Assembly (NCBI GenBank): GCA_017432615.1
Contig: JAFRIV010000006.1
Location: 1 to 38,611 of the forward strand
Reading direction: 5' to 3'
Length of the DNA: 38,611 nucleotides
From: Oscillospiraceae bacterium
GTDB taxonomy: Bacteria; Bacillota; Clostridia; Oscillospirales; Oscillospiraceae
The notes beneath the pieces were generated by a model, which saw nothing but the letters and a program-made list of their open reading frames with translations, was not told the DNA's origin and did not search any database. This document shows, one piece after another, positions 2-21,252 of this stretch (the first letter of the stretch is position 1; the number at the start of each line of letters is the position of its first letter). A program made the position numbers and the translations under genes.

Positions 2-70
2 GAAAGACTCGCACAGGCCGGATACTACAGTATCCTTGACCGATACGAGTCTCTGCACTTATGCGATTGA
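2..70 (+). CDS. C-terminal end of a group II intron-encoded reverse transcriptase/maturase (partial)
   Basis: The open frame entering from the left edge reads 22 residues (beginning ERLAQAGYYSILDRYE) and stops at TGA 68-70. It ends directly at the first bases of a group II intron domain V, which is where the reading frame of an intron-encoded protein normally ends. The short tail resembles the last residues of bacterial group II maturases (Leu-x-Asp-x-Tyr type ending), but it is too short to place in a class. The product would help splice and mobilise the intron. The call rests mainly on position next to the intron RNA domains. Upstream parts lie outside the window. Confidence 0.6.
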   Translation, partial: ERLAQAGYYSILDRYESLHLCD

Positions 71-140
71 ACCGCCGTGTACCGAACGGTACGCACGGTG
101 GTGTGAGAGGTCGGGGCTTACTCAGCCCCTCCTACTCGAT
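65..140 (+). mobile_element. 3' end of a group II intron (domains V and VI)
   Basis: Domain V is visible as a hairpin: ACCGCCGTG (71-79) pairs with CACGGTGGT (94-102) with one G-U pair, a CG dinucleotide bulge lies at 92-93, and an upper stem TACC/GGTA (80-83/88-91) closes a GAAC loop. Domain VI follows with stem GGGGCT (113-118)/AGCCCC (124-129) and a likely bulged branch-point A at 134. The 3' splice site is probably after T140 (ends AT, fitting the AY rule). The CGC at 73-75 in the catalytic triad position suggests a class C type intron, but this is uncertain. Only the last part is in the window, so mobility cannot be judged. It points toward the convergent solute-binding protein gene. Confidence 0.8.
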
Positions 141-12252: not shown

Positions 12253-13296
12253 TCAAGGGATCGTCGGCGTCAAAGCGGTGGTAAAAACGGTTCCGGCAAT
12301 ATCATTTACATTGCCAAAGCGGTCATTCGGATAATTGGAGAGCAAGATCACGGCAACCTGGGCATTCCTGTCGATCCAGATCGACGCTGCTCCCTGAGCT
12401 GTTTCACCGGACTGCTGCAGAACACTTCCCCGCTCCAGAATGTTCCAGAAGTATCCTGTCTGCATTTCAGCGTTGATTTCTCCGGCCGGATCGGATGCCA
12501 GCAGGAGATAGGGTTCCGCGGAGGTGAGATAAAGCCGTGCATAGGCGATCATATCCCCGATCGTGGAGGAAAGGGAAGAAGAAGCAATATAGGCATCGGA
12601 AGTAAGCCAGTGCCACCCGTCCCTGACAGTGTCGTCTACGGCGATCCGGGTGTGCTTCAGGCCGAGTTCTTCCCTGGCAAAAATGGTAAGGATGCTGTAA
12701 TAATCCACATCGTATATCTGGGAAAGGACAGCCCCGGCTACTGCTGCTCCGAAATCGGAATAGGAGTAGAGATAAGGCGGTTTCGCTGTCAGCTTGAAGT
12801 TATTCACCTGTGCCACAAGATCGTTGGCGGAGATCCCGGAATAAGGGTTTTTCCGAATCGGAGAATGGAAGGCGACCCCGGGCGCATAGGAGCCGTATGC
12901 GGAAGTGTGGGTAACAAGTTCAAAAAGCGTCGGAGCATAGGCTGAGCGGGCAAGAGGGAGATATTCCGAAATCCGCTCAGAAGGTGAAACCCTTCCCTCT
13001 GATACAGCCTTAGCAGCAATGGCACCGGTGAAGGTCTTGGTAATCCCGCCAAGCTCATAGACACGGTCCGGAACAGGGATGACTTCTCCGTCGTGACCGT
13101 AGGCTGTAATCTCTGTACCGCTCGGTGTTACGATGGCAAGAGTTAACTCAACCTCCGGCTTGTTGCGGGTATAGGTGCGTATCATCCTGCCGGAATCCGA
13201 AGGGATCGGTACATCCGTAAACAGTGCGATGCAAATGCCTGCGGCTGTCACGGCGAGCAATAATAAAATTGTCAGAAAATAGCGTCTCTTTTTCAT
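12253..13296 (-). CDS. Membrane-anchored serine hydrolase-like protein (beta-lactamase/PBP class C fold), nucleophile missing
   Basis: 347 residues. The start at 13296 opens a basic signal-anchor (MKKRRYF then a hydrophobic helix ~8-26), which places the rest outside the cell. The longer open frame crosses the tRNA-Leu and is not coding. The body resembles class C beta-lactamase/DD-peptidase proteins, but the SxxK motif reads G-I-T-K: Gly84 (codon GGG) replaces the nucleophilic Ser while Lys87 stays. The second motif reads YSD, an accepted variant of YxN. The usual HxG region appears as QSGETAQG without His. I infer a catalytically inactive, perhaps wall-binding or regulatory, relative. A promoter at 13304-13332 would start the message almost at the ATG. 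A bidirectional terminator follows the gene. Confidence 0.85.
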   Translation of the reverse strand: MKKRRYFLTILLLLAVTAAGICIALFTDVPIPSDSGRMIRTYTRNKPEVELTLAIVTPSGTEITAYGHDGEVIPVPDRVYELGGITKTFTGAIAAKAVSEGRVSPSERISEYLPLARSAYAPTLFELVTHTSAYGSYAPGVAFHSPIRKNPYSGISANDLVAQVNNFKLTAKPPYLYSYSDFGAAVAGAVLSQIYDVDYYSILTIFAREELGLKHTRIAVDDTVRDGWHWLTSDAYIASSSLSSTIGDMIAYARLYLTSAEPYLLLASDPAGEINAEMQTGYFWNILERGSVLQQSGETAQGAASIWIDRNAQVAVILLSNYPNDRFGNVNDIAGTVFTTALTPTIP

Positions 13297-13303
13297 AAAC
13301 AGG

Positions 13304-13332
13304 ATTGTATCATAATTTGTGCAAATCGGCAA
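13304..13332 (-). promoter_or_regulatory. Putative promoter giving a nearly leaderless message
   Basis: On the minus strand TTGCCG (13332-13327) and TACAAT (13309-13304) are 17 bases apart with a TGA extended -10. Only seven bases separate the -10 box from the ATG, and no Shine-Dalgarno sequence is present. Confidence 0.55.
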
Positions 13333-13339
13333 GCTTTGC

Positions 13340-13368
13340 TTGACATCGGCCCTTTCAGGTGATAAATT
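13340..13368 (+). promoter_or_regulatory. tRNA-Leu promoter
   Basis: TTGACA (13340-13345), 17-base spacer, TAAATT (13363-13368). The predicted start is about 25 bases before the mature tRNA. Confidence 0.65.
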
Positions 13369-13398
13369 ATGTTTTGTGTCCGATGGAAAATGGAATAT

Positions 13399-13481
13399 GC
13401 CGGTGTGGTGGAATGGTAGACACCAGGGACTTAAAATCCCTTGGGAGCAATCCCGTGCCCGTTCGAGTCGGGTCACCGGCA
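13399..13481 (+). tRNA. tRNA-Leu (anticodon UAA)
   Basis: 83 bases. The acceptor stem GCCGGTG (13399-13405) pairs with CACCGGC (13474-13480), followed by discriminator A13481. The anticodon arm has stem GGGA/TCCC around the loop CTTAAAA, anticodon TAA. A long variable arm (type II) and the T arm with GTTCGAG are present. No CCA is encoded after the discriminator base, so the end must be added by the cca product. Confidence 0.96.
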
Positions 13482-13489
13482 TGTAAAAC

Positions 13490-13544
13490 AAGGTCTCAGG
13501 GCTGAGCAACGGTAAAAAATATACCGCTTCCGGCATGAGACCTT
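13490..13544 (+). terminator. Probable terminator of the tRNA-Leu transcript
   Basis: AAGGTCTCA (13490-13498) pairs perfectly with TGAGACCTT (13536-13544); the long loop contains a smaller CGGTA/TACCG hairpin. It is followed by ATTTATAT, only a modest U-tract. Confidence 0.6.
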
Positions 13545-14461: not shown

Positions 14462-14489
14462 GAAACGGCATGTTTTCGTTGCCAGTTTC
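14462..14489. repeat. Inverted repeat overlapping the -35 box of the next operon
   Basis: GAAACGGCA (14462-14470) pairs with TGCC-A-GTTTC (14480-14489) with one bulged A. There is no U-tract. The right arm covers most of the -35 box TTGCCA, so it may be an operator or a weak 3' end for the preceding pair. Confidence 0.45.
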
Positions 14490-14507
14490 CGTCCGTCGTG
14501 TTATAAT
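14479..14507 (+). promoter_or_regulatory. Promoter of the lipoprotein / peptidase / cyclic nucleotide operon
   Basis: TTGCCA (14479-14484), 17-base spacer, TATAAT (14502-14507). The predicted start near 14514 gives a leader of about 30 bases. I see no other good promoter before 20,365, so it may drive seven genes. Confidence 0.75.
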
Positions 14508-14542
14508 ATCTTTGTTACTCTGTAATGAAGGTGAAAAACAGC

Positions 14543-15166
14543 ATGAACACAAAAACGATGAAACTGCTTGCCCTTTTGCTTGCAGCACTTATGACTTTTA
14601 TATTGACCGCGTGTGAAGTATCCAGCACCAGTACCAGTTCTGTGACGGTGACTACCAGCAAGACGGATGCGGACGGAAATACAACGACCAGTACAACGAC
14701 TACCCAGATCGACGTTTCGTCGGGGACTGACGGCGTAAAAACAACGACGGAGACGACCACGACAGAAACTTCTTCGTCGGAAGCGGCAGTTGAGGGAGAA
14801 GCAGATGACGAGGGTGATGAAGCCGGGTTGACGGAGCATCTTTATGCTACCTACAGCGTCGGAGCGAAAGGCAGCAACGAAGCGGGCGATATCTTCTTTT
14901 ATGCGTACAATGAGGACAACGACGATGCTCTGCTGGTGATCATTTCTGAAGACGGCACTCAGTATAACGGCTGGGAGGGCACGGCCGAGGTTGTTGACGA
15001 CCATGTTGTGCTTTACGGAACGGATTCCGAAGTTCCCTATGTGTTTGGAGAAACGGAAGACGGTTTTACCATGACGTTCTTGAATGACGGGGATGTTGCG
15101 ACGATGCAGTTTGTCGACATGGATGATTTCGTGAGTGATCTTGTGGCCGGCCGGATGGCGTTCTGA
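14543..15166 (+). CDS. Thr/Ser-rich lipoprotein of unknown function
   Basis: 207 residues from ATG 14543, preceded by AAGGTGA; an ATG six codons earlier has no ribosome site. The signal peptide ends in LTAC with Cys24. Residues ~27-75 are a Thr/Ser-rich low-complexity spacer, and ~76-100 are acidic. The remaining ~105 residues look like a small beta domain (TEHLYATYSVG, DIFFYAYNEDNDDALLVII). I do not recognise the family. It is the first gene of the run leading to the cyclic nucleotide genes, 36 bases before the peptidase. Confidence 0.8.
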   Translation: MNTKTMKLLALLLAALMTFILTACEVSSTSTSSVTVTTSKTDADGNTTTSTTTTQIDVSSGTDGVKTTTETTTTETSSSEAAVEGEADDEGDEAGLTEHLYATYSVGAKGSNEAGDIFFYAYNEDNDDALLVIISEDGTQYNGWEGTAEVVDDHVVLYGTDSEVPYVFGETEDGFTMTFLNDGDVATMQFVDMDDFVSDLVAGRMAF

Positions 15167-15202
15167 TATGCTGTACTGAACGAAGAGAATGAGGAGAGAC
15201 GA

Positions 15203-16957
15203 ATGAAAACAAATCGGAAAATACGCGGGATTTCGCTGCTGTTAGCTTGCATGATGATATTCAGCTGCATGTCCTGCGCCTTCGGGGAAGAGAAAGATGC
15301 GCACAGCATAACCATGAAGACGTACCCGTTCTATTTAGGCAGTTCATTGGATGATATGCTGAATCAGGAGTTCCCGCTCTATTTTGTGGACGGGGTTGCC
15401 GATCTGCCTTATGCGGATGTCCGTGATTGGGCCGAACTCCTGTGTTTTATCAACACGGATATTTCCGAAGACTCCGGCTATGATCTGAGCATTGAGTATA
15501 AAGATAAAGCAGTCACTCTTGAGAGAGAAAACGGGTACACGCTGAATTTTGATTTTGCCAACGGAAAGCTTGTGTTTGAGGATTATGACGCTTTCATGCA
15601 CAACTCCAATGATACGGCACTGATCGATCTGGTATCAGAGAGCAGCACAGATGATGCGGGCAACGCTCTCCTGGTCTGGCGAAACAAAGCAGACTCTTTT
15701 GACCGTTACGGAGACGTTATGACAGTGGATCTTGCCTCCTGCGGGATCCCGATGGTCATAAAGGATGAAAACTATCTTGTCCCGCTGCAGACGATGGATG
15801 ACTTTACACTTTTGCCCTCAATGTACAGTGTCATCTTTAACGGGCAGGCTCTCTTCCTCGTAAACGATGAAGTTTTCTTTGATTATAATGAAGGAGGCTA
15901 TACCGAGGTTGCGTGGAAGTATTACGATGCGCCTGCCGGCGAGCGCAGCAATGAACTGGCAGAATACAGTTATAATGAGTTGTGCCTTGCCCTGGATACT
16001 TTCTATGGACTGAAAGAAGCACATGATATTGACTCTTTCCGCAAGGTCTTCTGGCAGATCGGCTATGATGAGGTGCTCAGCGGCAACAGTGCACTGGATG
16101 CGGACAACGCTTTGAAGTCATTCATTGATTATTATCTGGACGACCTTCATTCTGGCTTTAACGAATACTCTGCGCTTGCCGGCATGAATTCGATTTCCGA
16201 CAGCACAGGGACGGCCAATCGCAAATTTGATGCACATTCCGATATTTACCGCAAAGCACGCGATGCCGCCTATCCGGACGGCTGGCTGCAGTATGAGGAA
16301 GTCGGCAACACGGCATACATCACCTTTGACTCCTTTTCGTCAAGATACTACGCACCTGCCTATTATGCGGCTAAAGAGGAAAACAACCAGTTGGATGACA
16401 CGGTAGCACAGATCATTGATGCCCATGCCCGGATCACACGGGAGGGCAGTCCCGTTGAGAATGTGGTGCTGGATCTGAGCAACAACACGGGAGGCGCGGT
16501 GGACGCCGCCGTTGTAGTATTGAGCTGGTTCCTCGGAGATGCCACCTTCAGTGTCAAAAATATGGCAACGGGTGCCCTTTCCAGCGCCGTATACCGTGCG
16601 GATATCAACCTGGACGGCGTGTTTGATGAAAAAGACACGGTCGCGGATAAGAACCTTTACTGCCTTGTCTCGCCGGTGAGTTTCTCCTGCGGCAATCTCA
16701 TACCGGCTGCTCTGAAGTCCTCCCAGAAGGTGACCCTGATCGGCCGGACTACAGGCGGCGGCAGCTGTGTGGTACAGCCGATGACTACCGCCTATGGCAC
16801 TGTTTTCCAGATATCCTCCGCGATGCGGATGTCTTTCCTGAAAAACGGTTCTTTCTATGATATTGACCAGGGTGTCGATCCGGATTACTACATCGACCAC
16901 ATCTCCAATTATTACAACCGTGCAGCCCTGACCGATTTTATCAACGGTCTGTTTTAA
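15203..16957 (+). CDS. Secreted S41-family peptidase-like protein
   Basis: 584 residues with a signal peptide (~1-28; SCMSC could act as a weak lipobox). The start has GAGGAG at good spacing. The N-terminal ~250 residues are not recognised and may contain a beta-rich binding part. Residues ~300-580 carry the S41 (tail-specific protease) fold: VVLDLSNNTGG, then SPVSFSCGN with the probable nucleophile Ser495, then IGRTTGGGS. In CtpA-type enzymes a Lys follows in FGKG; here that place reads TTGGG, so a Ser-Lys dyad of the classic type is not visible and the catalytic base is unclear. It acts outside the membrane, if active. It lies between the lipoprotein and the first cyclic-nucleotide-binding gene with no terminator. 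Confidence 0.85.
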   Translation: MKTNRKIRGISLLLACMMIFSCMSCAFGEEKDAHSITMKTYPFYLGSSLDDMLNQEFPLYFVDGVADLPYADVRDWAELLCFINTDISEDSGYDLSIEYKDKAVTLERENGYTLNFDFANGKLVFEDYDAFMHNSNDTALIDLVSESSTDDAGNALLVWRNKADSFDRYGDVMTVDLASCGIPMVIKDENYLVPLQTMDDFTLLPSMYSVIFNGQALFLVNDEVFFDYNEGGYTEVAWKYYDAPAGERSNELAEYSYNELCLALDTFYGLKEAHDIDSFRKVFWQIGYDEVLSGNSALDADNALKSFIDYYLDDLHSGFNEYSALAGMNSISDSTGTANRKFDAHSDIYRKARDAAYPDGWLQYEEVGNTAYITFDSFSSRYYAPAYYAAKEENNQLDDTVAQIIDAHARITREGSPVENVVLDLSNNTGGAVDAAVVVLSWFLGDATFSVKNMATGALSSAVYRADINLDGVFDEKDTVADKNLYCLVSPVSFSCGNLIPAALKSSQKVTLIGRTTGGGSCVVQPMTTAYGTVFQISSAMRMSFLKNGSFYDIDQGVDPDYYIDHISNYYNRAALTDFINGLF

Positions 16958-17013: not shown

Positions 17014-17409
17014 ATGCAACTCAAAACATTCAACAAAGGGGAAGTTATTTTCCAAAAAGACGATTCCGGCGATTGCATGTATGAAGTATATACCGGGATA
17101 GTAGGCATTTACTCTGCATATGGCACGCCGGAAGAACAGCTGCTTACAGAGTATTTTCCGGATCATTACTTCGGCGAAATGGGCCTTCTGGAAAAAGAAC
17201 CGCGTTCAGCTACGGCAGTTGCTTTGAAGGATGACACAACGGTCGCAGTCATTACAGAAGACGGATTTGGTGAATTTATCGAGAAAAATCCTGTAAGTAT
17301 GCTGGTGCTTCTGCAGCAGATGAGCCGCAATCTCCGTAAAAGGACCAATGAATATGTCCGGGTCTGCCGCGAAATCAAGGAGTTATCCGAGAAGGAGGGC
17401 AAAGAATGA
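17014..17409 (+). CDS. Stand-alone cyclic-nucleotide-binding domain protein (first of two)
   Basis: 131 residues from ATG 17014, with GGAGGGA just upstream; the ATG at 17002 lies inside that ribosome site. A single CNB (CAP-type effector) beta-roll fills residues ~4-105, ending in a helix to ~131. The phosphate-binding cassette is intact: FGEMGLLEKEPRSATAVA with Glu55, Arg64 and Ser65 at the positions that hold ribose and phosphate in CAP. There is no helix-turn-helix, so this is not a CRP transcription factor. Its end overlaps the next gene as ATGA (17406-17409). Position beside a nucleotidyl cyclase suggests that it receives that signal; a partner protein is unknown. Confidence 0.9.
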   Translation: MQLKTFNKGEVIFQKDDSGDCMYEVYTGIVGIYSAYGTPEEQLLTEYFPDHYFGEMGLLEKEPRSATAVALKDDTTVAVITEDGFGEFIEKNPVSMLVLLQQMSRNLRKRTNEYVRVCREIKELSEKEGKE

Positions 17410-17888
17410 ACAGCAAAACCTTTGATAAGGGAGCCGTTATCTTCCGGCAGGGAGATTTTGCCGAATCCATGTTTGACATCATCTCCGGGAGCGTAGGAGT
17501 ATACGTCAATTACGGCACGGAATATGAGACGCAGCTTACTGTTCTGAAAGCCGGAGATTTCCTCGGGGAGATCGGTATGATCGAATATTTTCCCCGCAGT
17601 GCTACGGCGGTTGCGATGGAGGACGGAACCGAACTTCGGGAGATCGGGGAAAGCGAATTTGACAAGTACTTTAATACTCAGCCGGATCGCCTGCTGGCGA
17701 TCATGCGGCAGTTCAGCAGACGTCTTCGGGAATTGACGGCGGATTATGAATCAGCCTGTGATATCCTCGAGGAACTGAAAAAAGAAAACGGTAAGCCGGA
17801 AGAGAAAAAGGTGAACCGTTTCCTTGCATTCTATAACAGCGTAATGACATCGCTTAAGGACAGCAGCTTTATGTCATATCTCCAGTAA
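17406..17888 (+). CDS. Stand-alone cyclic-nucleotide-binding domain protein (second of two)
   Basis: 160 residues; the start overlaps the stop of the first CNB gene as ATGA. The CNB fold (~3-105) aligns without gaps to its neighbour through the cassette: FLGEIGMIEYFPRSATAVA again places Glu55, Arg64 and Ser65. It differs by a 30-residue C-terminal extension with a Lys/Glu-rich stretch and an ending in SFMSYLQ. No DNA-binding domain is present. The two genes look like an old tandem duplication that kept binding residues in both copies, so they may form heteromers or read different nucleotide levels. The cyclase follows after a hairpin. Confidence 0.9.
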   Translation: MNSKTFDKGAVIFRQGDFAESMFDIISGSVGVYVNYGTEYETQLTVLKAGDFLGEIGMIEYFPRSATAVAMEDGTELREIGESEFDKYFNTQPDRLLAIMRQFSRRLRELTADYESACDILEELKKENGKPEEKKVNRFLAFYNSVMTSLKDSSFMSYLQ

Positions 17889-17910
17889 TGTTTTCTGAAT
17901 AGGAAAAGAA

Positions 17911-17943
17911 TCGGCTTCCGTCCTCTCCAGGGACGGAAGCCGA
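17911..17943 (+). repeat. Strong hairpin between the second CNB gene and the cyclase gene
   Basis: TCGGCTTCCGTCC (17911-17923) pairs perfectly with GGACGGAAGCCGA (17931-17943). It is followed by ATTAAAC, not a U-tract, and the cyclase ribosome site AGAGG comes soon after. It may adjust read-through, message ends or cyclase expression rather than stop transcription fully. Confidence 0.6.
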
Positions 17944-17961
17944 ATTAAACAGAGGCACGGT

Positions 17962-19356
17962 ATGGAACGGAATATGGTCATACACAGCAGTATTATCTCC
18001 GGAATGTCGGAGGGAGTGATGGTTCTCCGATCCGGCGGTTCTATCGAGATCGTCAACGATGCTGCGCAAACCATTTTGAATAAGACGGAAGAAGAACTGA
18101 TAGGACAATCCTTCGCTCGCGTCTTTTTAGGCGAAGAGGAGAATGACGAGTTTATTCAGTGCGTTTTGAATGCCGCTTACGACATGGGGAAACGTCATGA
18201 AAGCTATGTCTCTTATCATACAGGGGAAAGCGTAAGGCAGCTGCGAGTGGTTTCCTCCTGCCTGCAGGAACAGGGAGAAGTCATCGGAGTGATTCTCGTC
18301 ATCAGCGACATCACCGAGCTTACGGAAATGCGGGATGCCATCCACGCGATGGAGACCATACAGGAACTGAACCGCCAGCTGGAACTTCGTAATCGTGTTC
18401 TGCAGGAAACGTTCGGCCGCTACCTGTCAGATGATATCGTACGGGAGATCCTGGATTCTCCCGACGGCTGGAAGCTCGGAGGGCAGAGACAGTATCTTAC
18501 CGTTCTGATGAGTGATCTGCGGGGTTTTACAGCCATGTCTGAAAGGATGCGGCCGCAGAGCCTGATCACAATGCTCAACCATTATTTCAGTGAAATGTAC
18601 GAGGAGATCGAGCGCTATCACGGGACTCTGATAGAATTTATGGGAGACGGAATGATGGTCATCTTCGGTGCACCGGTCCGCAGGGAAAACCATGCTTCCG
18701 ATGCCGTCGCAGCGGCCATCGGGATGCAAAAACGCATGGAGGCAGTCAACCGTTGGAACGCAGAACGGGGCTACGAGCCGATTTCCATGGGGATCGGTAT
18801 CAATACCGACAACGTGATCCTCGGGAATATCGGGTCGGAAAAGCGTACCAAATACGGCGTGCTTGGTGCGGCAGTGAATCTTGCAGGCCGGATCGAAGGC
18901 TTTACCACAGCCGGTCAGATCCTGATTTCACCCGGTACGCGTGCGGCGGTATCAAACGAACTGGATATCGCGCAGATCGTGAAAACCAGTATGAAGGGGG
19001 TAAAGGGAGAGATCCTGCTTTCCGACGTGGTCGGGATCCGGGAGCCCTATAATCTGCATCTGAACAGCAAAAAGTGCGAGCTGAAACCGCTGTCCCACCC
19101 GGTTCCGGTGCGTTTTTCCGTTCTGAAGGAAAAATACATCAGCGACAGCGGGCTGGAAGGGGAGATCCTTTCGGCTTCGGAAGATGAAGCAGTAATGAAA
19201 ACCGCGGAAAGCCTCTTTGTATGGGAAAATCTCTGTGTGGACATCGGGGATAACCTGTACGCAAAGATCACCGGGATCGAAGGGGATAGGGTCCATCTCT
19301 CTTTTACGGCAAAACCTCCCTGCTTTGCAGACTGGTTCGATCGGATCAACCGATAA
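17962..19356 (+). CDS. PAS domain class III nucleotidyl cyclase
   Basis: 464 residues, cytoplasmic, no membrane helix. PAS sensor ~8-118; helical linker ~120-150 ending in FGRYLSDDIV; cyclase homology domain ~176-345; C-terminal beta-rich domain ~380-455 that looks PilZ-like. Metal ligands Asp185 (SDLRGF) and Asp229 (GDG) and transition-state residues Asn306 and Arg310 are present, so catalysis is plausible. The two base-selecting positions are unusual: Glu225 stands where adenylyl cyclases have Lys, and Gly299 where they have Asp or Thr, a combination I associate with a branch of bacterial cyclases. ATP or GTP preference cannot be assigned. It follows two CNB genes and precedes a PHP phosphoesterase, probably as one operon. 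Confidence 0.9.
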   Translation: MERNMVIHSSIISGMSEGVMVLRSGGSIEIVNDAAQTILNKTEEELIGQSFARVFLGEEENDEFIQCVLNAAYDMGKRHESYVSYHTGESVRQLRVVSSCLQEQGEVIGVILVISDITELTEMRDAIHAMETIQELNRQLELRNRVLQETFGRYLSDDIVREILDSPDGWKLGGQRQYLTVLMSDLRGFTAMSERMRPQSLITMLNHYFSEMYEEIERYHGTLIEFMGDGMMVIFGAPVRRENHASDAVAAAIGMQKRMEAVNRWNAERGYEPISMGIGINTDNVILGNIGSEKRTKYGVLGAAVNLAGRIEGFTTAGQILISPGTRAAVSNELDIAQIVKTSMKGVKGEILLSDVVGIREPYNLHLNSKKCELKPLSHPVPVRFSVLKEKYISDSGLEGEILSASEDEAVMKTAESLFVWENLCVDIGDNLYAKITGIEGDRVHLSFTAKPPCFADWFDRINR

Positions 19357-19414
19357 AATGCAGGCCTGCCGCCTAATGCCGACGGAATTGCTGCTGTTGT
19401 TCTAAAGGGGAAAT

Positions 19415-20272
19415 ATGCAGAAAATCGACTTACATATGCATTCAACCGTTTCCGATGGCACGGATACGCCGGAGGAACTGCTGGAGAAAGTCCGCAGTGC
19501 CGGAATCCGGCTTTTCGCACTGACGGATCACGACGCTGTGAAAGGCTGTGTCTCTGCGCGGAAACTGCTCCGGGAGGGGGACCCGTTCCTGCTGCCCGGT
19601 GTGGAATTCTCCTGCCGGGATGAGGATGGGAAATATCATATCCTTGGTTACAATTATGACCCGGACAGCGCACACATTCAGAATCTTGTAGATACCGGCC
19701 ACAGCTTTCGGATGAAAAAAGCCGGAGCCAGGCTGGAGTTTCTTCAAAGCAGATTCGGTTTTTGCTTCCCGGAGGAAGAGATCCGGAAGCTGCTGGCTCT
19801 GGACAATCCCGGGAAGCCTCACATCGGGAATCTGATGGTGAAATATGGATATGCAGAAACCAAGGAACAGGCTATTCGTGATTTTATCAATCAGGCACGT
19901 TTTCGCAGTGAATTCATACGTCCGGAACAGGCTATTCGGAGGATCCTGCAGAGCGGAGGAATTCCGGTTCTGGCTCATCCCTCCTTCGGGAGCGGAGAGG
20001 AACTGATTGTCGGGGAAGAGATGGAAACCCGTCTGCGCCGGCTGATCGGGTTCGGCCTGCAGGGAGTGGAGGCGTTTTATTCCGGTTTTACGCCGAAACT
20101 GCGGAAGGAGATCCTGGGCTTTGCGGAGAAGTACCGCCTTTATGTTACTGCCGGCAGTGATTACCACGGGGAAAACAAACTGATACAGCTGGGAGACACC
20201 GGGCTTGATCAGGCTGTGAAGATCCCGGAGGGAATGGCGCGTTTTTTCGAAAGAATCAATTACAGAGATTGA
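19415..20272 (+). CDS. PHP-domain phosphoesterase (RNase AM/TrpH-like)
   Basis: 285 residues, a single PHP domain of the size seen in 3',5'-nucleotide phosphatases and the RNase AM/YciV/TrpH group. Metal ligands visible are His7 and His9 (DLHMHST), Asp14, TDHD with Asp38 and His39, Glu64 (GVEFSC), a His in KPHIGN, LAHPSFG, and GSDYHG near the end. There is no polymerase or histidinol-phosphatase extension. Relatives hydrolyse nucleoside 3',5'-bisphosphates or short RNA. By inference from its place after the cyclase it might help clear nucleotides of the pathway, but this is not shown. GGGG lies five bases before the start. Confidence 0.88.
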   Translation: MQKIDLHMHSTVSDGTDTPEELLEKVRSAGIRLFALTDHDAVKGCVSARKLLREGDPFLLPGVEFSCRDEDGKYHILGYNYDPDSAHIQNLVDTGHSFRMKKAGARLEFLQSRFGFCFPEEEIRKLLALDNPGKPHIGNLMVKYGYAETKEQAIRDFINQARFRSEFIRPEQAIRRILQSGGIPVLAHPSFGSGEELIVGEEMETRLRRLIGFGLQGVEAFYSGFTPKLRKEILGFAEKYRLYVTAGSDYHGENKLIQLGDTGLDQAVKIPEGMARFFERINYRD

Positions 20273-20361: not shown

Positions 20362-21252
20362 ATGATGTCAAAAAAGACAAAGGCGATCCTGAATTGTGTG
20401 CTTTCAATTGCAATATGTCTGTCAGCCGGTATGGGTGCCTGCGCTGAAAAGGATATCGCGGCGACGATGCCGGAACCTTCGAAAGAGAGCGGGACCTCCC
20501 GGATGATTATCGAGAAGATCCTGGTGCTCTACGGCACTTACGGAGAGGCTGCTTCAGATAGAATCGAAGAACTGATGGGCGAACTGGAGGCAGCCGATGC
20601 CCCTGCGGCAGAAAAATGGAAAGAGATCCTGAATTTATGGAGGGCGGATGATCCGATGATCCATGAGGATATCCTCCCTGACGGATTGCCGGATACCGAT
20701 GCGTTATGCATAGTCGCGCTGGGTTTTCAGCTGAACCCGGACGGCAGTATGAAGGATGAACTTATCCACCGCCTGGAGACGCTGAAGCGCAGTGCGGAAA
20801 AATATCCGAAAGCCCGGATCGCCTGTACCGGCGGAGGAACGGCACGGGACAATCATGCCGCAACAGAGGCGGGGGAAATGGCAAAATGGCTTGCTGAGAA
20901 CGGGATCGATCCCTCCCGTGTCATTGTGGAGGATCGTTCCCAGACCACTGCGCAAAATGCAGTTTTCACACTGGATATTCTGGAGGATCAGTTCCCGCAG
21001 GTTTCCGAGCTTGCCATTGTATCCAGCGATTATCATATCGCCACGGGAACGCTTCTCTTCAATGCCGAAGCCATTCTGCGCGGGAACAGAGATTTGAAAG
21101 TAATTTCCAATGCCGCCTGGAAAGCAACCTCCGGGACCCTTTCCCCGATGTTTCAGGCAGGAGCCCTGGTCGAACTCCTCGGCGACAGGGAAACGGCCTA
21201 CGATATCTACTTTAATACATACAATATTCATGAGATTCTTCCTCTTTCCTGA
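20362..21252 (+). CDS. Secreted YdcF/SanA-type (DUF218) protein
   Basis: 296 residues. GGGAG (20352-20356) serves ATG 20362 or the adjacent ATG 20365; the open frame back to 20269 has no such site. The N terminus is a signal peptide ending near AGMGACAEKD; Cys could be a weak lipidation site. The DUF218 domain spans ~110-270 with IVALGFQL, CTGGGTARDNHAATEAGEM, DRSQTTAQNA, and VSSDYHIATG. DUF218 proteins such as ElyC and SanA act at the envelope, some in lipid carrier or wall metabolism; the activity here is unknown. It closes the seven-gene run and is followed by the terminator at 21337-21376. Confidence 0.85.
   Translation: MMSKKTKAILNCVLSIAICLSAGMGACAEKDIAATMPEPSKESGTSRMIIEKILVLYGTYGEAASDRIEELMGELEAADAPAAEKWKEILNLWRADDPMIHEDILPDGLPDTDALCIVALGFQLNPDGSMKDELIHRLETLKRSAEKYPKARIACTGGGTARDNHAATEAGEMAKWLAENGIDPSRVIVEDRSQTTAQNAVFTLDILEDQFPQVSELAIVSSDYHIATGTLLFNAEAILRGNRDLKVISNAAWKATSGTLSPMFQAGALVELLGDRETAYDIYFNTYNIHEILPLS

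What the first reader, a model, noticed from the sequence alone, without database searches (positions are those of the whole stretch)
17014..20272. Candidate cyclic nucleotide signalling operon: two CNB proteins, a PAS cyclase and a PHP phosphoesterase
Seen: two stand-alone CNB proteins coupled by ATGA, a PAS class III cyclase and a PHP phosphoesterase on one strand with 58-73-base gaps and no U-tract terminator. Known: class III cyclases make cyclic nucleotides and CNB domains bind them; PHP relatives hydrolyse nucleotides. Inference: this is a full make-sense-clear unit without a CRP factor, so the receivers must act on other proteins.
Basis: partly seen in the sequence, partly recalled or inferred. 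Interest (0 to 1): 0.72.

Follow-up and report, generated by a model that had tools for sequence, protein, structure and literature searches.

The report
Paired cyclic-GMP receivers with their cyclase
A gut/rumen Clostridia genome carries a small gene set that probably makes the messenger cyclic GMP and reads it with two different receiver proteins that are found together, a kind of signalling hardly known in these bacteria.

Summary
The core CNB1-CNB2-cyclase is conserved: 15 of 15 genomes of the genus with this PAS cyclase have both CNB genes directly upstream. PHP is not part of that core: it follows the cyclase in 0 of 14 relatives. In 11 of 14 that slot holds an MBL-fold hydrolase with the cyclic-nucleotide phosphodiesterase motif.

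The cyclase has intact catalytic residues and the Glu-Gly pair of the guanylyl cyclase Cya2, so cGMP is the likely product. The CNB proteins fall into two types, A and B, found as A then B (42 of 42 complete pairs), or fused as B-A in two other lineages. This points to an obligate two-part receptor. CNB pairs track the PAS and short cyclases (28 of 30 genomes, against 2-6 of 71). One cyclase often serves two or three pairs.

A conserved RNA-like hairpin sits between CNB2 and the cyclase in 12 of 15 genomes, with no comparable match elsewhere in 101 genomes. Nothing is shown biochemically. Targets are unknown.

The parts
17014..17409 (+). CNB1 (type A receiver), stand-alone cyclic-nucleotide-binding domain, 131 aa
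   Evidence: PF00027 73.3 bits; keeps GEMGLLEKEPRSAT; clade A with 100/98 support
17406..17888 (+). CNB2 (type B receiver), stand-alone CNB domain plus C-terminal tail, 160 aa
   Evidence: PF00027 66.9 bits; keeps GEIGMIEYFPRSAT; clade B; ATGA overlap with CNB1
17911..17955 (+). conserved hairpin (stem 17911-17943) and tail in the CNB2-cyclase gap
   Evidence: homologous in 12 of 15 genus loci; 98.3% of cells paired, 3 pairs with changes on both sides; only site of the pattern in own genome; no comparable match elsewhere in 101 genomes
17962..19356 (+). PAS - class III nucleotidyl cyclase, predicted guanylate cyclase, 464 aa
   Evidence: D185, D229, E225, G299, N306, R310 invariant in 16 rows; best solved relatives 6fht and Cya2 2w01
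17989..18312 (+). PAS domain of the cyclase (residues 10-117)
   Evidence: PF00989 43.5 bits
18493..19011 (+). catalytic domain of the cyclase
   Evidence: PF00211
19090..19353 (+). C-terminal domain of the cyclase, about 88 aa, unassigned, conserved in three lineages
   Evidence: A5 alignment; no credible Pfam or PDB relative
19415..20272 (+). PHP-family metallo-phosphoesterase, in the slot that holds an MBL-fold PDE-like gene in relatives; not part of the conserved core
   Evidence: PF02811 40.1 bits; NCBIfam bisphosphate phosphatase 116.9 bits, below cut-off 400
20362..21252 (+). DUF218 protein, next to PHP also in relatives
   Evidence: PF02698 61.2 bits; DUF218 match near PHP in 11 of 28 orthologue loci
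15203..16957 (+). S41-family peptidase upstream (neighbourhood, membership unsure)
   Evidence: PF03572 71.2 bits; S41 with a small lipoprotein next to the CNB pair in 5 of 25 further CNB loci
14525..15166 (+). Ser/Thr-rich lipoprotein upstream (neighbourhood); promoter-like site 14479-14507 before it
   Evidence: homologue beside CNB pair and S41 in L116. The region has no more promoter-like sites than shuffles give

Best explanation
This is a cyclic-mononucleotide signalling module, most likely for cGMP. The cytosolic PAS domain senses a ligand or redox state and, through the FGRY transducer helix, sets the activity of a Cya2-like class III guanylate cyclase. The product is bound by CNB1 and CNB2, two different stand-alone CNB proteins that work as one obligate A+B receptor, comparable in layout to the two CNB domains of PKA-R or PKG but split over two genes, with no kinase gene seen beside them. 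The loaded receptor then acts by protein contact, not DNA binding. One cyclase serves as hub for several A-B pairs placed beside different outputs. The messenger is cleared by an MBL-fold class-II-like phosphodiesterase, here on another contig; PHP at most assists. The hairpin before the cyclase probably holds its synthesis below that of the receivers. Shown from sequence: gene order, conserved residues, A/B pairing, co-occurrence, hairpin. Inferred: cGMP as product, receptor assembly, targets, clearing enzyme, role of the hairpin.
For: Core order in 15 of 15 genus genomes with the PAS cyclase, and a linked CNB protein in 6 of 7 further named MAGs and in two genomes of a third lineage. Metal, transition-state and Glu-Gly substrate residues invariant in 16 of 16 rows; best solved relatives are a Cya2 chimera (6fht) and Cya2 itself (2w01); one residue, E488K, turns Cya2 into an adenylate cyclase (PMC5995499 passages); GCs carry Glu instead of Lys, and Cya2 has an E-G pair (PMC4215837 passages). 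Ligand motif kept in 60 of 60 CNB domains. A/B split 100/98; 42 of 42 complete pairs A then B; fused B-A proteins in L072-L075, L077, L078, L135, L166. CNB pairs in 28 of 30 genomes with PAS or short cyclases, in 0 of 6 with only the 600-700 aa cyclases and in 2 of 65 without a cyclase, 4 more of those unresolved (Fisher p about 7e-17 or lower). MBL gene after the cyclase in 11 of 14 relatives, motif [ST]HxHxDH in 25 of 25, best solved relative YhfI, 6kns, which prefers cAMP/cGMP (PMC9117128 passages). Hairpin.
Against: No activity, binding or transcript was measured. Cya2 has a Tyr that strongly boosts GC activity; this family has Gly there (N-L-A-G-R against N-L-T-Y-R), so GTP preference could be weaker. 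Two genomes with a short cyclase lack a CNB pair (G037, G065), and two without a detected cyclase have one (G100 and G069, both MAGs of 85-86% completeness). L076 has the PAS cyclase but no CNB nearby. The Fisher test ignores shared ancestry. The CNB base-contact residues were not assessed, so cGMP against cAMP binding is open. The short cyclases of the same genus carry D/E/A/S and D at the two specificity sites, so the CNB pairs there may read another nucleotide. A redox or other ligand for CNB cannot be excluded. The MBL assignment rests on motif and weak profile scores (62 bits against a cut-off of 400; RNase Z models score similarly).
Confidence: 0.62

Rival explanations
1. Same module, but the messenger is cAMP (or another cNMP): the cyclase is an adenylate or mixed cyclase despite the E-G pair and the CNB pair reads cAMP as CRP does.
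For: CNB domains resemble cAMP-binding CRP, PKA-R and EPAC as well as cGMP-binding PKG. In L153 a CHASE2 cyclase with Lys at the first site, as in adenylate cyclases, is followed by a TIM barrel and a CNB protein. The Tyr that boosts Cya2 GC activity is replaced by Gly.
Against: Glu and Gly invariant in 16 of 16 PAS cyclases; the AC-determining Lys is absent; Cya2 and its chimera score over 75 bits above the next solved relatives, 3r5g CyaB and 1wc0 (that these two are adenylate cyclases is partly recalled).
Confidence: 0.2
2. One reading: PHP is the dedicated enzyme that hydrolyses the cyclic nucleotide, a non-homologous replacement for the MBL enzyme in this lineage.
For: PHP occupies, 58 nt after the cyclase, the slot that holds a putative metallo-phosphoesterase in most relatives: MBL in 11 of 14. 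A calcineurin-like enzyme with the CNP C-terminal domain follows the short cyclase in L057 and a 61% homologue in L059, and an AP_endonuc_2 TIM barrel follows the PAS cyclase in 4 of 7 further named loci. The PHP metal-site motifs are present.
Against: PHP follows the cyclase in the window only; 28 orthologues sit elsewhere, 14 of them near SpoIIE genes. Its own genome also has the MBL gene. Family relatives are nucleoside bisphosphate phosphatases or exoribonucleases, not cNMP hydrolases. The TIM-barrel family is named for xylose isomerase, so that slot need not be a phosphoesterase.
Confidence: 0.15
3. A Pycsar-like anti-phage system: the cyclase makes cCMP or cUMP on infection and the CNB proteins are effectors.
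For: PADLOC PycC models hit the cyclase (best 67.3 bits) and PycTIR/TIR-effector models hit the CNB proteins (best 38.4 and 45.6 bits).
Against: Those matches cover only the shared cyclase and CNB domains. No TIR or other effector domain is present in 131- and 160-aa proteins, whereas Pycsar receptors carry TIR or transmembrane domains (PMC11224242 passages). Core order conserved across a genus, with no match at E<=1e-40 in 72,556 plasmid records and only 4 phage records with a catalytic domain at 34-35% identity. The specificity residues are of the GC type.
Confidence: 0.05
4. The gene order is inherited by chance or by co-transcription of housekeeping genes, with no shared pathway between CNB pair and cyclase.
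For: The members of one genus share ancestry; operon neighbours often persist without functional link (general knowledge, no call).
Against: Re-arranged and fused versions in two other lineages with order reversed, presence/absence correlation, hairpin conserved only at this site.
Confidence: 0.05

Closest known systems
Synechocystis guanylyl cyclase Cya2 (PDB 2w01; chimera 6fht)
   Same: Class III catalytic domain with the same E-G substrate pair; FGRY motif of the transducer helix present
   Different: Cya2 has a CHASE2 sensor and a membrane segment; this enzyme has a PAS domain and an unassigned C-terminal domain, lacks the Tyr of Cya2, and is linked to CNB pairs
Xanthomonas XC_0250 / XC_0249 cGMP pathway (PMC3770947, passages seen)
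   Same: Guanylate cyclase encoded beside a CNB protein that reads cGMP
   Different: There the CNB domain is fused to a GGDEF output; here two different stand-alone CNB proteins have no recognised output domain
Rhodospirillum centenum gcy/CgrA cyst pathway (PMC4681086, passages seen)
   Same: Cyclase and cGMP receiver gene linked
   Different: CgrA is a CRP-type transcription factor; no HTH here
Pycsar (PycC with PycTIR/PycTM; PMC11224242, passages seen)
   Same: Class III cyclase plus CNB protein in one locus
   Different: No TIR effector found; GC-type specificity residues
PKA regulatory subunit / PKG tandem CNB domains
   Same: Two unlike CNB domains in one receptor; a fused protein (L073) matches these in the PDB
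   Different: Bacterial, split into two genes in the genus; no kinase seen beside them, none searched for genome-wide
MBL-fold class-II phosphodiesterases YhfI, Rv1339, Apyc1
   Same: The relatives' enzyme in the slot after the cyclase has [ST]HxHxDH and matches YhfI best
   Different: In the window this slot holds a PHP protein instead; profile scores are far below family cut-offs

Membership tests
Class III guanylate cyclase (Cya2 type) | two metal-binding Asp, transition-state Asn and Arg | tested here: met
   D185, D229, N306, R310 invariant in 16 rows
Class III guanylate cyclase (Cya2 type) | Glu in place of Lys and a small residue (Gly in Cya2) in place of Asp/Thr | tested here: met
   E225 and G299 invariant in 16 rows; same letters in 2w01
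Class III guanylate cyclase (Cya2 type) | Tyr next to the transition-state Arg, reported to boost GC activity | tested here: not met
   Gly309 in all 16 rows against Tyr in 2w01; reported role. Not a defining feature of all GCs
Class III guanylate cyclase (Cya2 type) | makes cGMP | not testable with these tools
   needs an assay
Cyclic-nucleotide-binding domain PF00027 | score over the curated cut-off and the phosphate-binding cassette | tested here: met
   (73.3 and 66.9 bits, cut-off 27.5); motif in 60 of 60 domains
CRP/FNR transcription factor | C-terminal helix-turn-helix domain | tested here: not met
   only PF00027 in 131 and 160 aa; best NCBIfam CRP hit 57.8 bits against cut-off 266
Pycsar | CNB receiver fused to TIR or transmembrane effector | tested here: not met
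   no TIR or other effector family in the CNB proteins; transmembrane segments not run through a predictor
Pycsar | cyclase makes cCMP or cUMP | not testable with these tools
   needs an assay; residues are GC-like
Tandem-CNB receptor of PKA-R type | two distinct CNB domains in one functional unit | tested here: inconclusive
   A plus B in 42 of 42 complete pairs and in the fused proteins; physical complex not tested
Tandem-CNB receptor of PKA-R type | controls a protein kinase | not tested
   no kinase family was searched for in the genome
3',5'-nucleoside bisphosphate phosphatase / RNase RNM (PHP) | NCBIfam cut-off | tested here: not met
   116.9 of 400 and 107.7 of 375 bits; metal-site motifs present
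Atypical class-II PDE (MBL enzyme of relatives) | [ST]HxHxDH motif | tested here: met
   25 of 25
Atypical class-II PDE (MBL enzyme of relatives) | NCBIfam cut-off for cyclic nucleotide-degrading PDE | tested here: not met
   62.2 of 400 bits for L042, 54.9 for L039
Intrinsic terminator (hairpin 17911-17943) | U-tract after the stem | tested here: not met
   no + strand call at this site; tail AATTAAAC in the window, often ATTTGAAT in relatives

The most novel reading that the evidence does not exclude
Uncultured gut/rumen Clostridia run a dedicated cGMP network built as hub and spokes. One PAS guanylate cyclase, one class-II phosphodiesterase and several copies of an obligate two-subunit CNB receptor (A+B) without a DNA-binding domain control different protein outputs (SpoIIE/STAS partner switching, S41 peptidase and lipoprotein sets, GG-leader LysM proteins). 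A dedicated RNA hairpin sets the cyclase-to-receiver ratio.
Probability: 0.4. Interest if true: 0.8.

Novelty: new variant of a known kind. Interest (0 to 1): 0.62.

Why it matters
Proven bacterial cGMP pathways are few; those I saw passages on are from cyanobacteria, R. centenum and Xanthomonas, and even cAMP is doubted for many Firmicutes (PMC5217690 passages). My searches of the held paper library for guanylate cyclase or CNB systems in Firmicutes/Clostridia listed nothing whose title or abstract start describes this arrangement; most subscription papers are not held there. If the A+B receptor is real, it is a simple bacterial counterpart of the two-domain receptors of PKA and PKG. It would make testable why such receptors need two unlike cyclic-nucleotide sites, and what CNB proteins do in bacteria when they are not transcription factors.

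Tried and rejected
PHP as a conserved member: rejected. A 'frameshifted' MBL gene in L035, suspected from a poor gene call, was wrong: the ORF is intact. The first gene caller was polluted by antisense ORFs and was replaced by a codon-usage caller, which still missed the MBL gene of L032 (found). CNB motif search with too strict a pattern was redone; even then 5 of 45 loci had one member outside the pattern, because of PRNAT or PRSAA variants in L114, L115, L121 and L131; in those four, best BLAST hits are again type A then type B. L117 stays unresolved (one CNB found by my gene calls although one search listed two). The cyclase C-terminal domain looked PilZ-like to me; no Pfam or PDB support, so I leave it unassigned. 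Structure prediction never ran. Wider survey: 2 of 391 class genomes have the PAS cyclase at E<=1e-60 and 29 of 391 any PF00211 at E<=1e-10; G491, whose cyclase is intact in L166, is not in the list, so it was either not sampled or missed there. CNB base-specificity residues: not pursued. Cyclase-class and CNB-pair counts per genome were made by hand from the listings. One search does not list its weakest matches, so on a re-check I fetched the surroundings of 16 listed hits in 11 cyclase-free genomes: G069 has an A-B pair, while no second CNB was found beside the listed hits in the others, among them G012 and G080, earlier held open.


Full report
What is there. The window is contig C34 of a 2.40-Mb, 50-contig assembly, 87% complete. 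Named relatives carry titles of uncultured Lachnospiraceae, Ruminococcaceae, Oscillospiraceae and Eubacteriales MAGs, one of them from sheep duodenum; from recall, the RUG prefixes mark rumen MAGs. Family scores are over the Pfam cut-offs. The genome has one PF00211 cyclase and four PF00027 domains: this pair, and a second pair on C10 whose second member carries a weak ParB-like tail.

Conservation of the core. In 101 genomes of the genus, 15 (window included) have the long PAS cyclase. In all 15 the two CNB genes lie directly upstream on the same strand (in L034 CNB1 is cut by the contig end). Of nine named loci, L070 and L071 have the contig lengths of two genomes already counted (G096, G031). 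Of the other seven, six (L072, L073, L074, L075, L077, L078) have, instead of two CNB genes, one 333-337 aa protein with two CNB domains downstream of the cyclase; L076 has none among the genes shown. In a third lineage, G185 (L135) has a 309-aa double-CNB protein about 80 nt upstream of a PAS cyclase, and G491 (L166) the same with touching genes; both cyclases keep the Glu-Gly pair. In a sample of 391 class genomes the PAS cyclase is rare: own and G185 only at E<=1e-60.

Two kinds of receiver, found together. An ML tree of 60 CNB domains splits 100/98 into type A (CNB1, CNB1b, C-half of fusions) and type B (CNB2, CNB2b, N-half of fusions). In a FastTree of 103 domains a split that puts the window's CNB1 with the fusion C-halves and CNB2 with the N-halves has support 94. 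On it, 42 complete pairs in 40 of 45 loci are A then B, with no AA, BB or BA; in five loci only one member passed my motif filter (with for four of them). The fused proteins are B-A. Split and fused forms with reversed order are hard to explain unless one A must go with one B. This is inference; no complex was measured. All 60 domains checked keep the GE...RSA(T/S) cassette. That its Glu and Arg touch ribose and phosphate is recalled knowledge.

Co-occurrence. From the listings, counted by hand: CNB pairs (two PF00027 matches under 700 nt apart) occur in 15 of 15 genomes with the PAS cyclase, in 13 of 15 with only the short cyclase (not G037, G065) and in 0 of 6 with only the 600-700 aa cyclase. 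In the 65 without a detected cyclase, G100 (L112) and G069 (L218) have a pair. G008, G055, G082 and G098 stay open because two matches each are not listed. In the other cyclase-free genomes with unlisted matches no second CNB was found beside the listed ones. Fisher p is 2.6e-20 to 7.2e-17 for 28 of 30 against 2 to 6 of 71, ignoring shared ancestry. Several genomes have two or three pairs and one such cyclase (for example G024, G084, G094), so the cyclase looks like a hub and the pairs like spokes. Other genomes of the genus also carry CRP-like single CNB proteins.

What it makes. The best PDB matches of the cyclase are the Cya2 chimera 6fht (218 bits) and Cya2 2w01 (192 bits), then 3r5g CyaB (115) and 1wc0 (76). 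Metal Asp185 and Asp229, transition-state Asn306 and Arg310, and the specificity pair Glu225/Gly299 are invariant in 16 rows. Passages of PMC4215837 say that GCs carry Glu for Lys and that Cya2 has E-G; passages of PMC5995499 say the E488K change makes Cya2 an adenylate cyclase; the 6fht row shows Lys there. Against: Cya2's Tyr, reported to boost GC activity, is Gly here. The FGRY motif of the transducer helix named in PMC5995499 is present (residues 151-154). Short cyclases of the genus have D, E, A or S with D at the two sites, so their product is open.

How it is cleared. PHP is not the conserved answer. Its orthologues (57-71% identity) occur in 28 of 100 other genomes, none with a cyclase gene within 1.5 kb by my reference proteins; 14 of 28 have a SpoIIE-type phosphatase gene and 11 of 28 a DUF218 gene there. 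So PHP-DUF218 belongs to a partner-switching neighbourhood that also touches the cyclases: SpoIIE or STAS genes lie beside them in several loci. In 11 of 14 relatives the slot after the PAS cyclase holds an MBL-fold protein: ten by direct search and G063 by its second contig; not in G031, G096 or G024, where the contig ends 571 nt after the cyclase. In 13 of 17 short-cyclase loci it lies directly upstream of that cyclase (L062 starts inside the cyclase). All 25 copies of 240-330 aa tested have [ST]HxHxDH, the signature of atypical class-II PDEs (PMC9293780 passages; there Rv1339 also degraded 3',5'-cGMP). Best solved relative is YhfI, which prefers cAMP/cGMP (PMC9117128 passages). NCBIfam scores are far below cut-off, and RNase Z models score about as high. 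The window genome keeps a copy on C39. A calcineurin-like enzyme with a CNP C-terminal domain (L057, and by homology L059) and an AP_endonuc_2 TIM barrel (4 of 7 further named loci; also L153) fill similar slots. That the slot is for phosphoesterases of any fold, PHP included, is a possible but unproven reading.

The hairpin. The CNB2-cyclase gap folds into a 13-14-bp stem (-30.8 kcal/mol; 0 of 200 shuffles as stable). Twelve of 15 genus loci have a homologous stem; L043 has a strong stem of other sequence; L041 and L042, with 42-nt gaps, have none. On ten distinct rows 98.3% of cells pair, three pairs change on both sides (26 of 500 shuffles reach that) and several cells use G-U, which favours RNA over a DNA operator; the number of pair types is no higher than in shuffles (324 of 500). 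Slid controls are lower, but relatedness and a structure taken from these rows inflate such scores. A covariance model finds the twelve sites at 50.9 bits or more; the next best elsewhere in 101 genomes, reverse-strand readings of the same stems apart, is 33.4 bits (60 first-look candidates scored per genome). An exact pattern is found at one place in the own genome. There is no U-tract, so it is not a standard terminator. A role as attenuator or processing/stability element is my inference.

Rivals and filing. It is not a CRP (no HTH) and not Pycsar by its parts (no TIR effector). It works like the Xanthomonas and R. centenum cGMP pathways in linking cyclase and CNB protein (passages) but has neither their GGDEF nor their CRP output. 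I call it a new variant of cyclic-mononucleotide signalling.

Noticed in passing
L035 14976-15236, 9052-9312, 12478-12726, 11981-12304; L032 3345-3689, 5555-5824; L038; L044; L045; own genome L067 2522-2764, 5781-6044: Small proteins with a double-glycine-type leader (such as ELEEVSGG) fused to LysM or CW_7 wall-binding repeats lie near CNB pairs in several genomes, own genome included (Pfam for two of them). A possible leader-exported wall-binding family.
   Followed up: partly
L116, L120, L122, L125, L130 and window 14525-16957: A Ser/Thr-rich lipoprotein and an S41 peptidase sit next to CNB pairs in 5 of 25 further CNB loci (L109-L133) and in the window.
   Followed up: partly
L046-L062: Short stand-alone class III cyclases with D/E/A/S in place of the Lys and D at the second specificity site, directly after an MBL-fold PDE-like gene in 13 of 17 loci. 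The product is unclear.
   Followed up: partly
L153 268-3534 (G365): CHASE2 cyclase with Lys at the first specificity site, then AP_endonuc_2 TIM barrel, then a CNB protein with a Cys-containing tail.
   Followed up: partly
L034 1196-3036, L035, L110, L067 9249-11163: Second CNB pair whose B member carries a weak ParB-like tail (tested in L067), followed by a HAD-like protein; in L034, L035 and L110 it lies downstream of the cyclase, MBL and SpoIIE genes.
   Followed up: partly
L218 2324-3202 (G069) and L112 (G100): A-B CNB pairs in genomes where no class III cyclase was detected; the MAGs are incomplete, or the pairs answer to another source of messenger.
   Followed up: no
window 70-140 (+): Rfam group II intron match, 43.2 bits, near the contig start.
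   Followed up: no
window 13399-13481 (+): tRNA match (53 bits) lying antisense within ORF 12253-13536.
   Followed up: no
G031:C50:715-762: Best off-site match to the hairpin model, 33.4 bits; context not read.
   Followed up: no
window 19090-19353 and C-termini in A5: Conserved unassigned C-terminal domain of the PAS cyclase, about 88 aa, found in three lineages.
   Followed up: partly
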